Of a DNA stretch of 43,559 nt, positions 7,243 to 19,300 are shown one piece after another. The notes under the pieces were generated by a model, which ran no database searches, had not been told where the DNA came from, and was given only the letters and a program-made list of their open reading frames with translations. The position numbers were made by a program, and so were the translations under genes. Source of the stretch: a virus; IMG/VR virus record IMGVR_UViG_3300005288_000007, positions 1-43,559 of that record. The stretch is one strand, 5' to 3'. The stretch's first letter is position 1; each line of letters begins with the position of its first letter.

Positions 7243-9720
7243 TTAGTTGAGGTAAGACGGGGTGAACCCGTCCATGTACTCCGATTGGAGTTCTTTGCGC
7301 AGCACTGCTGCTCGTTCCTTGAGCCCTTCGATAGGCTCTTCGTCCATCATGGAGTAACCCCACGACGTATCCGATGGGACACGCAGCGGAATGTTCCACT
7401 TAAATTTCCACGCCATGTAATCCGAGGCAGCTTCCATCGCTGCATGAAGCAGAGCGGATACCTCGAAAGCCACGGAGTTATGAGCATCTGCATAGGTTGC
7501 ATCGTGCACTTGGTTCACCAACAGGCCAAGCCCGTTGAAGTTCTTCCTCTTGTAGAATGCACGCAGTGCTATGTACATCGCAGCCTTGGCCCACTCGCCG
7601 CCCGTACCTTGAACTACGTAGTTCTTAATCTCGGTCGGCATGAAGGTAGCCGTGATGCCCTTCTTCACTGCGTACTCGGGAGCCGGTGTCTGCATGTAGG
7701 TGTACATCTTCCCGTCCGGTGTACGGAAGTGGCTCTTGCCCAAGTGGGCCTTGACACCTCGCACGTCCGGATGGTCAACCACCTTGTACGGCACACGGTT
7801 CTCATTGATGACGAGCGTTATCCGTTTGTAGTACGCCGGGATTTCCGGGTAGCGTTCTTCGTCAGCAGCACGTAGGCGTGCAACGTCCTCGACGTCCATG
7901 CCGGTCTTCTCAGCAATAGCCTTGTCGCCAGCGCCGAACGCGGACTGGAAGGAGTACTCCTTAGCCCCAGTCCGTTTGTAATCCCACTCCTTGATGGGGG
8001 CATGGAACGTACCGCTTTCATCCTTGTACCCCTTCGCCAGTTTAAGAACCTCGGCGTACTCCATCTTCTCCTTGGCAGCGAGGCGAACACAGTGCATGTC
8101 CAAGCCTGCGGCAAGGTCGGCAATGAGTTGCTTGCACCCAGTGAGGATGGCTTGCACGAAGACTTCCAGCGAACTGAAGTCCGACTGAATGATCTTGCCG
8201 TCGCTGTACCATACGCTGTTGCCGAAGTCGTCCGTAACCCAGTGGCCGAAGCGAGACTTGAACAGCAGCTTAACGTCAGACTTATTGCCCTTCGGAATGT
8301 TCTGCAAGTTCGGGTTGCTTGATGACAGCCGTGCCGTAATGGTTGACACCATGTTCAGCATGTGATGGACCAAACCATCCGGACCAACCAGCGTCATGAG
8401 GCCGGAAGGATTGCCCTGCTTATCCTGCCCGATGAAGTACGTACCCAAGTCCTTGGACATAGCTTGAAGCTGGCCCATGATCTTGAGGAACGGCACGTTA
8501 CGGGAGGCAAGCTCTTCGATCACCTCGCTCGCTGTGCTGTACACGCCGGGCTCTGCGCCCTCCCACTTCTTAAGCGGAGCGGTGTAGCCCTTGAAGGTGT
8601 ACGGCGCCTTGACTTGACGGCCCTTCGGCTTCGTCTCATCAGGCACAGTGACTTGCTTGGTCTTCCGCTCGCCGGCATTCTTGCCGGTCTTCATCACCAC
8701 GATATCAGGTTGCGTGCCGAACGGCATAGCATCCCACTCGTCGGCCGGCATCAGGCTACCGTCAGTCAGGTAGTAGGCAGTGACCTTCTTCTGTGCATAC
8801 ACACGGGCCGGTGCTTCGCCCATCTGCTCAAGCAACTCGTAGTCACGCTTAAGCATGGTCGTGCCATCGGCCAGATCATACTCGTAGTGGTCGTAACCCA
8901 CGGTGCCGCCGAAGATCAGCGCCGACTTCTGCGGCGGGCTGTTCCAGTTGAAGGAGAACGGCAGGTCGGCGGGCATGAACGCCTTAAGCGCCTCGCCCAA
9001 CTTAAGCACCTCGACACGCAGCACGTCAGCGATACGCATACCCTGCGCAGTGTCAACGAACATGCCATTGCGTTCCGCCTCGACGGTGTACAGCAGGGCG
9101 CCCATGTTGAGCATGATGCTCGGCAGTTGCCCACGTTCACGGGCCATGGAGATTTGTTGTAGCGCAACGTGCTCGGTATTCTCTACGTCGCCCTTGCTCC
9201 AATCGCCATTCTCATCCGGCCCGCCGCACAGGTAGCGGGTCAGTAGCTCGGGCTCTATGTCCTCCGTCATCACGCCGGCATCCCACAGAAGTTTAACCTC
9301 GTCTACCTTCTGGTCGCCGCCGTAGCGGGCAGAGATTTCATTGAGGCTCAGCATCTGTGAGTCTTGGGCCTGCCCGTTAAGCAGGTACTCTGCTAGCTGG
9401 ATATCCCATACGATACCGCCACGCGATACGTACTCCATCCAGAGCAAGAGGTTGTCCGTGTCCTGCAACGCATGCTGCAAGTCGAACTTGATGTTCATGC
9501 CGATGAGCAACTTGATAAAGCTGCCGTCAGCATTCATGAGCACCGGCTTAAGCCAGCCCTCGCAGGGACGGTCACGACCAAAGCGATACTCGGTCACTGA
9601 CTTGTCGCCTGCCTTCTTGACGCCATGCGTTACGCACCAGTTCTCTGGTATGTACGCATTCGCCTTCCGCTTGAAGCGGGTATGGACAGTGGTTTCAATG
9701 TCCCAAGTAGCGTAGCTCAT
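7243..9720 (-). CDS. Family A DNA polymerase (T7 gp5-like)
   Basis: Replicative polymerase with a proofreading domain, 825 residues (T7 gp5 has 704). The exonuclease domain shows DIET near residues 7-10, NIKFD near 95 and a GDVENTEH block near 175. The polymerase domain shows motif A SDFSSLE near 512-518, motif B KEYSFQSAFGAG near 585, and motif C QVHDATYAD near 736. In motif C the usual HDE is HDA. A large insert lies between the two domains (around residues 270-380, containing GKNAGERKTKQV). The ribosome binding site is strong (AAAGGAGAGCC before ATG). Confidence 0.96.
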   Translation of the reverse strand: MSYATWDIETTVHTRFKRKANAYIPENWCVTHGVKKAGDKSVTEYRFGRDRPCEGWLKPVLMNADGSFIKLLIGMNIKFDLQHALQDTDNLLLWMEYVSRGGIVWDIQLAEYLLNGQAQDSQMLSLNEISARYGGDQKVDEVKLLWDAGVMTEDIEPELLTRYLCGGPDENGDWSKGDVENTEHVALQQISMARERGQLPSIMLNMGALLYTVEAERNGMFVDTAQGMRIADVLRVEVLKLGEALKAFMPADLPFSFNWNSPPQKSALIFGGTVGYDHYEYDLADGTTMLKRDYELLEQMGEAPARVYAQKKVTAYYLTDGSLMPADEWDAMPFGTQPDIVVMKTGKNAGERKTKQVTVPDETKPKGRQVKAPYTFKGYTAPLKKWEGAEPGVYSTASEVIEELASRNVPFLKIMGQLQAMSKDLGTYFIGQDKQGNPSGLMTLVGPDGLVHHMLNMVSTITARLSSSNPNLQNIPKGNKSDVKLLFKSRFGHWVTDDFGNSVWYSDGKIIQSDFSSLEVFVQAILTGCKQLIADLAAGLDMHCVRLAAKEKMEYAEVLKLAKGYKDESGTFHAPIKEWDYKRTGAKEYSFQSAFGAGDKAIAEKTGMDVEDVARLRAADEERYPEIPAYYKRITLVINENRVPYKVVDHPDVRGVKAHLGKSHFRTPDGKMYTYMQTPAPEYAVKKGITATFMPTEIKNYVVQGTGGEWAKAAMYIALRAFYKRKNFNGLGLLVNQVHDATYADAHNSVAFEVSALLHAAMEAASDYMAWKFKWNIPLRVPSDTSWGYSMMDEEPIEGLKERAAVLRKELQSEYMDGFTPSYLN

Positions 9721-12403: not shown

Positions 12404-13096
12404 TTAGAGCGGAGCCGCGCCGTATGCATAGACCGACTTCCCGCGCACCCCGCTCGCCACATGGGCAAGGCCGAGGGCTTTGAGCTTGGCGAATCGTGGG
12501 CTGATGCTGTTCAGCGGGACGCCAAGGCGCTTGCTCAGGTCTTCGGCAGTGGCAGGGCCGGCGCTGCGCAGCGACACGACAATCAGATCGTTGAGCTTGC
12601 CGGCCTTGCGTTCGATGACGGGTGCCGTCTCCGTGCTGGCCTTGTACTGTGCGCCGGCCAGTCGGGTACGCTCGGCGGTAACGCCAGCATCAAAGCCGGC
12701 ATCGAAGCCCGCTTCAAAGCCCTTGCCTCGTGCCATGTTGGGCAGGATGGCGGCAGCAATCAGCCCGTTCTTGTAGCCGTGCTCGAAGTAGCGAGCCTTC
12801 GCGTCGATGCCGGCGCTGTGTTTGATGGCGGCTGTACGATCCGCCTCTGCGAAGCGGCCAGTGGTTGTGCCCTGTGTGATGGGGGCTTCGATGGTTGCAG
12901 ACATGGTGGGTTGCTCCTTAGGTTGAGGTTTAACAATGAAAATCACACCGTCGCAGTCGCCGAGCTTGCGGCATAGCGAGGTAACTTCCCAGTTACCGGC
13001 GTGGGCAGCGCAACCGTTGCAAGTTGCGGGTGTGCCCTGCGGTCGGGACACGTAGTCCATACCATCATGCGTTTGCTCGTGCTTGATGTTGTTCAT
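12404..13096 (-). CDS. Winged-helix protein with N-terminal cysteine module and likely internal start
   Basis: A 230-residue protein. Residues 1-60 hold a small four-Cys module (CNGC near 27-30, then LCRKLGDC near 41-48). From about residue 165 to the end is a winged helix-turn-helix (LNDLIVVSLRSAGPATAEDL, then KRLGVPLNSISPRFAKLKALG as recognition helix region, and a wing with GKSVYAYG). An internal in-frame ATG at 12904 has AAGGAG eight bases upstream, so a 166-residue form lacking the Cys module is probably made too. It may regulate transcription or bind DNA during replication; the target is unknown. Its ATG overlaps the lipoprotein stop. Confidence 0.78.
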   Translation of the reverse strand: MNNIKHEQTHDGMDYVSRPQGTPATCNGCAAHAGNWEVTSLCRKLGDCDGVIFIVKPQPKEQPTMSATIEAPITQGTTTGRFAEADRTAAIKHSAGIDAKARYFEHGYKNGLIAAAILPNMARGKGFEAGFDAGFDAGVTAERTRLAGAQYKASTETAPVIERKAGKLNDLIVVSLRSAGPATAEDLSKRLGVPLNSISPRFAKLKALGLAHVASGVRGKSVYAYGAAPL

Positions 13097-16380: not shown

Positions 16381-16866
16381 ACGACTTAAAGCAAACTCCA
16401 ATGCACGCCTTTGTGGTGCTCGCACTAGTCGAGAGGGACATGCATCAGGCTTTGCTCTGTGCTGAGATGGGGCTCTAGTACGCCACGAGAACCCGACTGC
16501 GGCCCTGAACAATGCCTAGGCAGGCCGCTTGTAATTAACGTCAGGCAAGCTCATGACGGGCCGTGTTAGACGGAGGCCAAACCCAAATTACTGTTTATCC
16601 CGACTCAAGCCCGAGACTAATACGGGAAACACTAGATGATCTAGTCCCGATGCTGGCTGTTTACGTTGTACGGTTACTGGCCCATCACACAGACGGGCGC
16701 TCAATTGACTAGCACTATGCAGCATGTGTGCGGCTAGGGCAGTACGTTGCCAGCAAATCTTGAATGGGCAGTGTCTATCGTAACTGGCGACCCGGCTCCG
16801 CCGGACCAGTAGACCCTATCGCCCTAATCTAACGCATAGACACCATCCTTTCAGACTTGTCTGTTA
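16381..16866. other. Stretch without a recognisable gene (about 490 bp)
   Basis: Between the HH1 cleavage site and the leader of the 43-codon gene I find no reading frame with a ribosome binding site, no promoter of good quality and no long hairpin. The only start-like site is an ATG near 16849 with AAAGGATGG upstream that stops within six codons. It would be transcribed as untranslated early RNA. Confidence 0.6.
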
Positions 16867-16943
16867 ATCGAATACCCTGCCGGTTCGTAGTTTCCAATCC
16901 GAACGCTAACAGGGTTTCGGGCTTCCGCCCTCATCAGTTCGAT
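16867..16943 (-). ncRNA. Type I hammerhead ribozyme HH1
   Basis: All parts of a self-cleaving hammerhead are present on the minus strand. Stem I is ATCGAA (16943-16938) with TTCGAT (16872-16867). The core CTGATGA is at 16937-16931. Stem II is GGGC-GGAA-GCCC with a GNRA loop (16930-16919). GAAA is at 16918-16915. Stem III is CCCTG (16914-16910) with CAGGG (16879-16875), extended by an inner GTTCG/CGAAC stem. The cleavage triplet GTA (16875-16873) follows, so the cut would be after 16873. Helix I is the open one, hence type I. Every core nucleotide matches the consensus. It lies 70 bases after the stop of the 99-residue early gene. Confidence 0.92.
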
Positions 16944-17012: not shown

Positions 17013-17312
17013 CTATCCACTCTCCCGGATTTGCCGCGCTGCCTCCTTGGCAATGCAGCCAGCACTCGCAAGGGACGTGCCTTCGCCCGTCTCTCTGAGC
17101 TTGGTTCTGCACAAGGACCAGATAGCCGGAGCTAGGTTGTCCCATCGTCGCAGTGGAATGTCGTTGAACGATGGGTCTTCCGACGCCATGATCGTTGGTT
17201 TACCGATACGCACAAGTACCAATTCAATGACGTCATCAGTCACAAACTGGGCATAGTACGTGCGGTGGTTGGCCTGTGTGCTCGGCAGAGCTACATAGTC
17301 TTTCCTTTGCAT
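17013..17312 (-). CDS. Early protein bracketed by hammerhead ribozymes (99 aa)
   Basis: A 99-residue protein. I use ATG 17312 because AAGGAG lies six bases upstream; the longer form from 17342 would start in the HH2 ribozyme. It is soluble and mixed alpha/beta: an N-terminal strand-rich part (YYAQFVTDDVIELVLVRIG) and a C-terminal helix (TSLASAGCIAKEAARQIRESG). The start is 26 bases after the HH2 3' end, and a hairpin plus HH1 follow its stop, so its mRNA could be released as a separate unit. No family is recognised. Confidence 0.78.
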   Translation of the reverse strand: MQRKDYVALPSTQANHRTYYAQFVTDDVIELVLVRIGKPTIMASEDPSFNDIPLRRWDNLAPAIWSLCRTKLRETGEGTSLASAGCIAKEAARQIRESG

Positions 17313-17337: not shown

Positions 17338-17396
17338 AACACCTACACCGGCCACGACAGCACGGCGTTTCGTCCTTCCGGACTCGTCAGGGTGTT
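17338..17396 (-). ncRNA. Type I hammerhead ribozyme HH2
   Basis: On the minus strand: stem I AACACC (17396-17391) with GGTGTT (17343-17338); core CTGACGA (17390-17384); stem II GTCC-GGAA-GGAC (17383-17372) with a GNRA loop; GAAA (17371-17368); stem III CGCCG (17367-17363) with CGGTG (17350-17346), one G-U pair, 12-base loop; cleavage triplet GTA (17346-17344), cut after 17344. Helix I is open, hence type I. The TGA stop codon of the upstream gene (17389-17387) lies inside CTGACGA, so terminating ribosomes would cover the core. All consensus core bases are present. Confidence 0.94.
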
Positions 17397-17641
17397 GGGT
17401 TGTCGTCAAGCGTCACAAAGGCCACTTGATTAACGCCAGAGACGGCACAAGGCCGCACAATGAGCGTATCGCCTGCCTCTTCTACTTTGACGCGACACCA
17501 GCCGTTCCAGCCAGCTAGCTCCTTTACGGCAGCAATCTGACCGCGCCGGCTCTGTGCAGAGGTCTTGCCGCGCTTTACCCAACAGTAGTTGGCTTCGCCG
17601 CCGAACGTATCGGTAACCTCGATTGCATAGACGTGCTTCAT
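17387..17641 (-). CDS. Small early protein whose stop codon lies in HH2
   Basis: An 84-residue protein starting at ATG 17641 with AAGGAG five bases upstream (an upstream start at 17719 lacks a site and would overlap the membrane gene). It is beta-rich and basic in the middle (YCWVKRGKTSAQSRRGQIAAV, then WCRVKVEEAGDTLIV), perhaps a small SH3- or OB-like fold. Its TGA is part of the hammerhead core, so the last four codons also form the stem I strand. The function is unknown. Confidence 0.78.
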   Translation of the reverse strand: MKHVYAIEVTDTFGGEANYCWVKRGKTSAQSRRGQIAAVKELAGWNGWCRVKVEEAGDTLIVRPCAVSGVNQVAFVTLDDNPTP

Positions 17642-17780: not shown

Positions 17781-17846
17781 AGAACCTCCTACAGTGAACA
17801 AACACTAAGAAGGACACTAAGCCGAAGCCTAGTATCCAACTTGCTG

Positions 17847-18476
17847 TTAGCTCGCAGCCGGCATTTCAGCCGATTCGACTGGCGGCGTTTCCGGTGTCAC
17901 AACCTCGGGCTGTTTCACTTCGGGCTTGTAGTCCTCGCCGGCCATTGCAGCGATAGCCTTAAGCATATCGACTGCATGATCGCTGCCCATGGGCTTGCCA
18001 TGGAGAACGATTGTCTTGCCCTTGGCACGAACAAGCAGACCGTGCAAAGCACGCTGCAAGTCGAACACTTCATCGATTCCCTTTTCGGGAAGATGCTCGA
18101 ACCATGGGTCGGCCATCGCCGCTTCGGGATTCGTCTTCTTAGCCTTGCTGAATTTCAGCGGCTGAGTCTTCTTCGTGTCGGCGGTGGTGTTGACCTCCAA
18201 GCCGCCATGTGCCAGAAGCCACGAGCCGAGAGCTTGCTTTCGCATCCCCTTCGGCAGACCGACAAACAGCCGGTTAACCGGCCCGATATCGCCGTGAGCC
18301 TTCAAGTGCATCAAGGCTTGCACCCCGACTTCTTGAATCTTGGCTTGCATGCCTTGAGCCGACTTGCACAGAGCGTCAATCGCCTTGTTCAGATCGGCGA
18401 TCACCAGCACCTTTGGCAGGTTGGAGACTGGCGTTGTCGGTGCCTTGGCATCCGTCTTCTTCGGTTTCGTTGTCAT
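17847..18476 (-). CDS. First early gene product, hypothetical (209 aa)
   Basis: The first gene after the host promoters, with AGGAG seven bases before ATG 18476. It has a Lys/Thr/Pro-rich N-terminus, a helical middle (about residues 25-70, DLNKAIDALCKSAQGMQAKI), a loop with a KKTQPLKFSKAKK stretch near 105, a second globular part (FDLQRALHGLLVRAKGKTIVLHG), and a Pro/Glu-rich disordered tail. It is of moderate length and high charge. The position suggests host takeover, but no family is recognised. Confidence 0.82.
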   Translation of the reverse strand: MTTKPKKTDAKAPTTPVSNLPKVLVIADLNKAIDALCKSAQGMQAKIQEVGVQALMHLKAHGDIGPVNRLFVGLPKGMRKQALGSWLLAHGGLEVNTTADTKKTQPLKFSKAKKTNPEAAMADPWFEHLPEKGIDEVFDLQRALHGLLVRAKGKTIVLHGKPMGSDHAVDMLKAIAAMAGEDYKPEVKQPEVVTPETPPVESAEMPAAS

Positions 18477-19160: not shown

Positions 19161-19190
19161 ATTGTAGCACACATTGCTATGTACTGTCAA
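19161..19190 (-). promoter_or_regulatory. Host sigma-70-type early promoter 1
   Basis: On the minus strand TTGACA (19190-19185), an 18-base spacer, then TACAAT (19166-19161) preceded by TGC, an extended -10. This is the best host promoter in the window and the last one before the early genes. Confidence 0.82.
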
Positions 19191-19271
19191 CACCCTTGTG
19201 TCTTGCTAGCCTAAACACTAGCTGGTAGCAACCTGCTACTGTAGGGCGGTATTGCCACCGGCTTGGCATCC

Positions 19272-19300
19272 AGTGTAGTCGTTACCGGCCACTCTGTCAA
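19272..19300 (-). promoter_or_regulatory. Host sigma-70-type early promoter 2
   Basis: TTGACA (19300-19295), 17-base spacer, TACACT (19277-19272), minus strand. The -35 is in the shared context GTTGACAG. Confidence 0.75.

What the first reader, a model, noticed from the sequence alone, without database searches (positions are those of the whole stretch)
17338..17396. Type I hammerhead ribozyme whose catalytic core contains the stop codon of the upstream gene
The minus strand carries all conserved hammerhead parts: CTGACGA, a GNRA-capped stem II, GAAA, stem III and a GTA cleavage triplet, with a perfect 6 bp stem I. The TGA at 17389-17387 ends the 84-residue early gene and is also part of CTGACGA. 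A terminating ribosome would therefore cover the core and block folding, so cleavage could be tied to translation of the upstream gene. That coupling is inference; the structural match is direct.
Basis: partly seen in the sequence, partly recalled or inferred. Interest (0 to 1): 0.92.

Follow-up and report, generated by a model that had tools for sequence, protein, structure and literature searches.

The report
Self-cutting RNA sharing a stop codon
A T7-like bacteriophage carries two small self-cutting RNAs (hammerhead ribozymes) that bracket one early gene, and the first shares its invariant core bases with the stop codon of the preceding gene; a survey of 104 hammerheads, nearly all from viral sequences, shows that sitting on the stop codon is a widespread rule and not a quirk of this phage.

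Summary
The minus strand at 17396-17338 is a complete type I hammerhead (HHR1; cut expected between 17344 and 17343), and the TGA at 17389-17387 is both a core element and the stop of the 84-residue gene. A covariance model built only from other viral hammerheads scores it 54.9 bits (E 6e-15); a full motif never occurred in 1,500 shuffled windows. The pair would release a 471-nt mRNA of one gene (17312-17013). Two related phage contigs carry a hammerhead at the same place, with stem I fully re-paired. In 104 surveyed hammerheads, 74% have an upstream stop codon starting at -9..+1 relative to the core, against 3.6% at shifted positions, in three preferred registers (-7, -3, +1); the window uses +1. 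Phage hammerheads flanking genes are known (Perreault 2011); I found no report of the stop-codon rule. Most likely these are constitutive mRNA-processing elements packed against the stop codon. Gating by terminating ribosomes is compatible but untested.

The parts
17387..17641 (-). Upstream early gene, 84 aa (phrog_22729-type N-terminus, function unknown); its stop TGA 17389-17387 lies in the HHR1 core
17338..17396 (-). HHR1: type I hammerhead; cut expected between 17344 and 17343
17384..17390 (-). HHR1 core CUGACGA; contains the stop codon
17338..17343 (-). HHR1 stem I 3' strand GGUGUU, expected new 5'-OH end of the gene-2 mRNA, followed by UAA (the commonest triplet at this flank in the survey)
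17013..17312 (-). Gene 2, 99 aa (phrog_25437, unknown all-helical protein), start codon 31 nt after the HHR1 cut, AAGGAG before the start
16867..16943 (-). HHR2: second type I hammerhead, stems 6/4/7 bp, GUA triplet; cut expected between 16873 and 16872
16388..16845 (-). Conserved noncoding stretch after HHR2 (candidate structured RNA), with a tiny ORF ATG-CGT-TAG at 16837-16829; shared with L003 and Variovorax phage VAC_51
16389..16450 (-). Lineage-specific hairpin motif GCCTGA-[stem]-TTGGAGT..GCTT, possible alternative processing signal
19161..19300 (-). Two sigma-70-like promoter sites reading towards the hammerheads (11 and 10 of 12 matches); the count is not above shuffles

Best explanation
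HHR1 and HHR2 are two constitutive type I hammerhead ribozymes that cut the early polycistronic transcript at both ends of gene 2. HHR1 cuts between 17344 and 17343. The upstream 84-aa mRNA keeps its stop codon and gains the ribozyme remnant (stems II and III) as a folded 3' end; the downstream RNA starts with a 5'-OH and a 31-nt leader that keeps its Shine-Dalgarno. HHR2 cuts between 16873 and 16872, giving a 471-nt single-gene mRNA capped 3' by HHR2 and freeing the noncoding stretch that follows. The stop codon lies in the core because phage hammerheads are placed flush against, or overlapping, the upstream stop, and the invariant UGA serves when the reading frame fits. Shown: the motif, its excess over chance, its recurrence before the homologous gene in two relatives, and the general stop-codon rule. 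Inferred: cleavage, the ends of the products, and the benefit to the phage.
For: Independent covariance model of 38 other viral hammerheads: HHR1 54.9 bits, HHR2 53.2, next best 11.7. 0 of 1,500 shuffles. Hammerhead fold is the minimum-energy structure of HHR1, HHR2, L003 and L010. L003 and L010 have a hammerhead directly before the gene-2 homologue, with all six stem I pairs changed on both sides (AACACC/GGTGTT against GCACAA/TTGTGC). Survey: stop at -9..+1 in 77 of 104 against 3.6% at shifted sites, and in 61 of 80 unrelated upstream-protein clusters; cut-to-start leader median 31 nt, the window's value. Annotated example: Cellulophaga phage phi19:3 gp051 ends with the base just before CTGACGA. 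Three tandem hammerhead sets were shown to cut in vitro and one in vivo in E. coli by Perreault 2011, PMC3088659.
Against: No activity data. Below Rfam's gathering score. Triplet GUA rather than the commoner GUC (10 against 88 of 104). HHR1 lacks the U at -7 seen in 62 of 104. HHR2 has no counterpart in L003 or L010, and more distant gene-2 carriers (L004, L012-L017, PP99, Aeromonas PS and others) have no hammerhead.
Confidence: 0.78

Rival explanations
1. Translation-gated ribozyme: a ribosome terminating at the embedded stop covers stem I and the core and prevents folding, so cleavage and separation of gene 2 happen only when the upstream gene is not being finished; translation of gene 1 thus controls gene 2.
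For: Stops cluster at -7, -3 and +1, each of which puts core or stem I bases under a terminating ribosome; L010 uses the same TGA, L003 ends its gene directly before stem I. The 5' side is flush (median -2 nt) while the 3' side keeps about 30 nt.
Against: Simple packing predicts the same positions. The hammerhead may fold and cut before a ribosome arrives, above all under the fast phage polymerase (general knowledge). The upstream genes are mostly unrelated (80 clusters of 98), so no particular gene is being sensed.
Confidence: 0.2
2. The overlap is only compaction or stop supply (this concerns the overlap, and is compatible with the best explanation of the ribozymes themselves): a hammerhead offers stops in all three frames (U-7, -3, and the invariant UGA at +1), so an ORF running into it ends there; no effect on cleavage or translation is selected.
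For: -7, -3 and +1 are three different frames; each has a ribozyme sequence reason: U is favoured at -7 and UGA is invariant. Gene ends in the same contigs are often contiguous (39% of gaps within 10 nt, crude gene calls).
Against: The non-hammerhead CTGANGA control gives 2, 1 and 23 of 231 at -7, -3 and +1, against 31, 15 and 23 of 104 at hammerheads, so placement is not set by the core word alone.
Confidence: 0.55
3. Decayed or inactive hammerheads, or parts of a mobile element, kept by chance.
For: Rfam score below threshold; HHR2 is not shared by the relatives.
Against: Every core base and all stem pairs are intact in both copies; stem I differs completely but stays paired in the relatives.
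Confidence: 0.06
4. The two hammerheads act together to release and circularise or ligate the RNA between them, as in retrozymes.
For: Two hammerheads in the same orientation bracket 471 nt.
Against: Perreault 2011 looked for spliced or circular products from tandem phage hammerheads and detected none; the segment is an ordinary gene with its own Shine-Dalgarno.
Confidence: 0.03

Closest known systems
Type I hammerhead ribozyme, Rfam RF00163
   Same: Core CUGANGA, GAAA, NUH triplet, three stems, open stem I
   Different: Long stem III loops, GUA triplet, score below Rfam's gathering cut-off
Clustered (pro)phage hammerheads flanking genes, Perreault et al. 2011 (PMC3088659)
   Same: Several hammerheads bracketing single genes in phage transcripts; processing of long transcripts proposed; in vitro and in vivo cutting shown for some sets
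   Different: Those were mostly prophages; here a T7/phiKMV-like phage of the P26059B/VAC_51 type. 'Stop codon' does not occur in that paper's main text
RNase III processing of T7 early mRNAs (general knowledge)
   Same: Cuts an early polycistronic phage RNA into gene-sized mRNAs with folded ends; the window also has a T7 gp0.7-like kinase gene
   Different: Here the RNA itself is the nuclease; the relatives mix hammerheads with a hairpin motif that could be an RNase III-type site (untested)
Hammerhead in the 3' UTR of rodent Clec2 mRNAs (from memory, not tested)
   Same: Hammerhead close behind a stop codon
   Different: Discontinuous, eukaryotic, not between cistrons

Membership tests
Type I hammerhead ribozyme | Invariant core CUGANGA ... 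GAAA | tested here: met
   for HHR1 and HHR2
Type I hammerhead ribozyme | Three helices I, II, III around the core, strand ends in stem I | tested here: met
   6/4/5 and 6/4/7 bp; minimum-energy fold
Type I hammerhead ribozyme | NUH cleavage triplet | tested here: met
   GUA in both; GUA in 10 of 104 viral hammerheads
Type I hammerhead ribozyme | Base pairs kept through compensatory change in relatives | tested here: met
   Window against L003/L010: all six stem I pairs and one stem II pair change on both sides. In the survey alignment 13 of 14 pairs covary, but those sequences were chosen for paired stems
Type I hammerhead ribozyme | Peripheral contact between loop II and the stem I internal loop | tested here: inconclusive
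   GGAA loop II and 3' UAA present (UAA is the commonest triplet there); the U at -7 is present in HHR2, absent in HHR1; contact not modelled
Type I hammerhead ribozyme | Score above Rfam RF00163 gathering cut-off (a search criterion, not a structural feature) | tested here: not met
   18.7 of 34 bits, stem I mis-registered; model R1 of viral hammerheads gives 54.9 bits
Type I hammerhead ribozyme | Site-specific self-cleavage in Mg2+ | not testable with these tools
   needs a bench test
Translation-coupled ribozyme switch | Cleavage depends on ribosomes on the upstream gene | not testable with these tools
   only positional evidence
Autographivirus (T7/phiKMV-like phage) | T7-type virion genes, DNA polymerase and single-subunit RNA polymerase | tested here: inconclusive
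   virion, terminase and DNA polymerase genes met; the RNA polymerase gene, expected next to the portal genes as in P26059B and VAC_51, was not found and may lie in the gap at the contig ends

The most novel reading that the evidence does not exclude
Phage hammerheads as a class are translation-gated processing switches: their stop-codon overlap, in any of three frame-specific registers, lets terminating ribosomes hold the ribozyme open, so that a transcript is cut into single-gene mRNAs only between, or after, rounds of translation.
Probability: 0.18. Interest if true: 0.82.

Novelty: new member of a known kind. Interest (0 to 1): 0.55.

Why it matters
What phage hammerheads do has been open since 2011. 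The rule found here (74% of 104 hammerheads begin at or overlap the upstream stop codon, with about 31 nt from cut to next start) gives a precise, testable arrangement: each ribozyme serves as stop codon, 3' end and processing site in one. It also offers a cheap filter for finding true phage hammerheads below Rfam's threshold, and adds T7-like lytic phages, where RNase III is the textbook processor of early mRNA, to the places where a ribozyme seems to do that job.

Tried and rejected
Rfam at gathering threshold: nothing in the window or in L003/L009/L010. Megablast of 15-19 kb against phages: no match. Scan for further hammerheads in the window, strict and by model: only two. Hammerheads in Curvibacter phage P26059B, VAC_51, L004, L012-L017, PP99, Aeromonas PS, 13AC503A, Vibrio 264E42.1: none. 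BLAST of consensus hammerheads against named phages: mostly chance hits in coding sequence; three real hammerheads, in Cellulophaga phi18:3 and phi19:3 and Xanthomonas RiverRider. Function of gene 2: no Pfam hit, PDB fold search without a significant match, viral matches uncharacterised. Literature search for the stop-codon rule: nothing found in the held library. MAFFT alignment of HHR1 with L003/L010 misaligned stem III, so pairs were compared by hand. The compaction test by gene gaps is crude and not decisive.

Full report
OBSERVATION. The minus strand at 17396-17338 reads AACACC CTGACGA GTCC-GGAA-GGAC GAAA CGCCG...CGGTG T A|GGTGTT: stem I 6 bp, stem II 4 bp with a GGAA tetraloop, stem III 5 bp, triplet GUA. 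The 84-aa gene 17641-17387 ends with the TGA of CTGACGA. The shuffled-window control gave no comparable motif in 1,500 shuffles. Rfam reports RF00163 only below threshold (18.7 of 34 bits, E 0.034 for 171 bases), in a register that breaks stem I; the correct register pairs all six positions. The hammerhead is the minimum-energy fold.

A SECOND HAMMERHEAD. CTGATGA at 16937-16931 belongs to ATCGAA CTGATGA GGGC-GGAA-GCCC GAAA CCCTG...CAGGG T A|TTCGAT, with stems of 6/4/7 bp. A covariance model (R1) built from 38 viral hammerheads that exclude the window gives HHR1 54.9 bits (E 5.7e-15) and HHR2 53.2 bits (E 1.9e-14); the next match in the window has 11.7 bits. The two expected cuts are 471 nt apart and bracket gene 2 (17312-17013, 99 aa, phrog_25437), whose start is 31 nt after the first cut with AAGGAG in front.

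THE PHAGE. Terminase, portal, head, tail, T7-type internal virion protein, DNA polymerase, DnaB-like helicase and a T7 gp0.7-like kinase place the contig near the autographiviruses Curvibacter phage P26059B and Variovorax phage VAC_51. The RNA polymerase gene was not found; both named relatives carry it just before the portal-side genes, which is where the contig is broken. The hammerheads are on the coding strand of the early genes, downstream of two sigma-70-like sites, although the promoter count is not above shuffles.

RELATIVES. Two IMG/VR contigs with gene-2 homologues of 53-60% identity have a hammerhead directly before that gene: L003 (cut before 7592, gene at 7628) and L010 (cut before 457, gene at 479). 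Stem I is GCACAA/TTGTGC there against AACACC/GGTGTT here, so every pair has changed on both sides. The genes upstream of the hammerhead are different in all three. In L010 the upstream stop is again the core TGA in the same register; in L003 it is a TAA directly before stem I. More distant gene-2 carriers lack a hammerhead, and HHR2 has no counterpart in L003 or L010.

THE STOP-CODON RULE. From pattern hits chosen only by core and loop plus the window and its relatives, 104 complete hammerheads with at least 200 nt upstream were kept, nearly all of them from viral contigs. In 77 (74%) a same-strand ORF of at least 50 codons stops at -9..+1 relative to the first core base. The shifted-position control is 3.6% (largest of 40 repeats 9.6%). 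Of 80 clusters of unrelated upstream proteins, 61 follow the rule. Stops pile up at -7, -3 and +1, which are three different frames. Non-hammerhead CTGANGA words in the same contigs give 2, 1 and 23 of 231 at these offsets, hammerheads 31, 15 and 23 of 104. The +1 class, to which the window belongs, is thus only mildly enriched by itself. T is the commonest base at -7 (62/104) and UAA the commonest triplet after stem I; the -7 register reuses that U. Leaders from cut to start have a median of 31 nt (quartiles 26-37). An annotated case is Cellulophaga phage phi19:3: gp051 ends at the base before CTGACGA and the next gene starts 34 nt after the cut. The same pattern gave 94 stretches in viral contigs and 18 in the far larger genome collection. 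Caveats: ORFs were defined mechanically, only GGAA-type loop II entered the search patterns, and the stems were required by the scanner, so stem covariation in the survey alignment is partly by selection; the stop position was never a criterion.

MECHANISM. In a type I hammerhead nearly the whole ribozyme stays on the 5' product. Placed flush against the stop, it leaves the upstream mRNA with an intact stop codon and a folded 3' end, and the downstream mRNA with a short leader and a 5'-OH. This explains the asymmetry of a flush 5' side and about 30 nt on the 3' side. Cutting is inferred from perfect conservation of the motif and from the bench results of Perreault et al. 2011 (PMC3088659) on comparable tandem phage hammerheads. 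Whether terminating ribosomes regulate cutting is open: in all three registers a terminating ribosome would cover stem I or core bases, but close packing predicts the same positions.

WHAT HHR2 MAY FREE. Behind HHR2 lies a conserved noncoding stretch (16845-16388) shared with L003 and VAC_51. Its 5' boundary is a hammerhead here and a hairpin motif in L003, and its 3' end is the hairpin motif in all three. This suggests, without proving it, that hammerheads and that hairpin are interchangeable processing sites.

VERDICT. A real, well-supported new member of the type I hammerheads, part of a two-ribozyme arrangement of a known kind, with a stop-codon overlap that proves to be a general and apparently undescribed property of phage hammerheads. 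The coupling idea remains a hypothesis.

Noticed in passing
window 16450-16389 (-); L003 6503-6550, 6925-6986, 8023-8081; L010 825-886; L247 (VAC_51) 8335-8407 and 12620-12665: Recurrent hairpin motif AAAGC..GCCTGA-[variable stem]-TTGGAGT..GCTT between early genes, seen only in this phage group; possible RNase III-type processing site or new RNA motif.
   Followed up: partly
window 16845-16388 (-), L003 6570-6990, L247 8003-8407: Conserved unannotated noncoding stretch of about 430 nt; its start carries a Shine-Dalgarno-like sequence and a 2-3 codon ORF (ATG-CGT-TAG, ATG-AAA-CGT-TAG, ATG-CGT-AGG-TAA).
   Followed up: partly
L141 (IMGVR_UViG_3300032234_000167) and L181 (IMGVR_UViG_3300049597_000173): Viral contigs with 7 and 5 full hammerheads within about 10 kb, at most gene junctions, nearly all directly at a stop codon.
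   Followed up: partly
L226 (Xanthomonas phage RiverRider, MG983743.2 about 17809-17859): A full, unannotated hammerhead about 350 nt upstream of a cluster of seven tRNA genes.
   Followed up: no
window 15974-15255 (-): Early gene similar to the T7 gp0.7 protein kinase family (phrog_15752), described there as a regulator of RNase III; no Pfam match.
   Followed up: no
window ends (1 and 43559): No single-subunit RNA polymerase gene found; relatives carry it where this contig is broken, so the contig probably lacks it by assembly.
   Followed up: partly
window 20130-18515: About 1.6 kb with few plausible genes before the first early gene, including sigma-70-like promoters; probably the genome end and early promoter region.
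   Followed up: no
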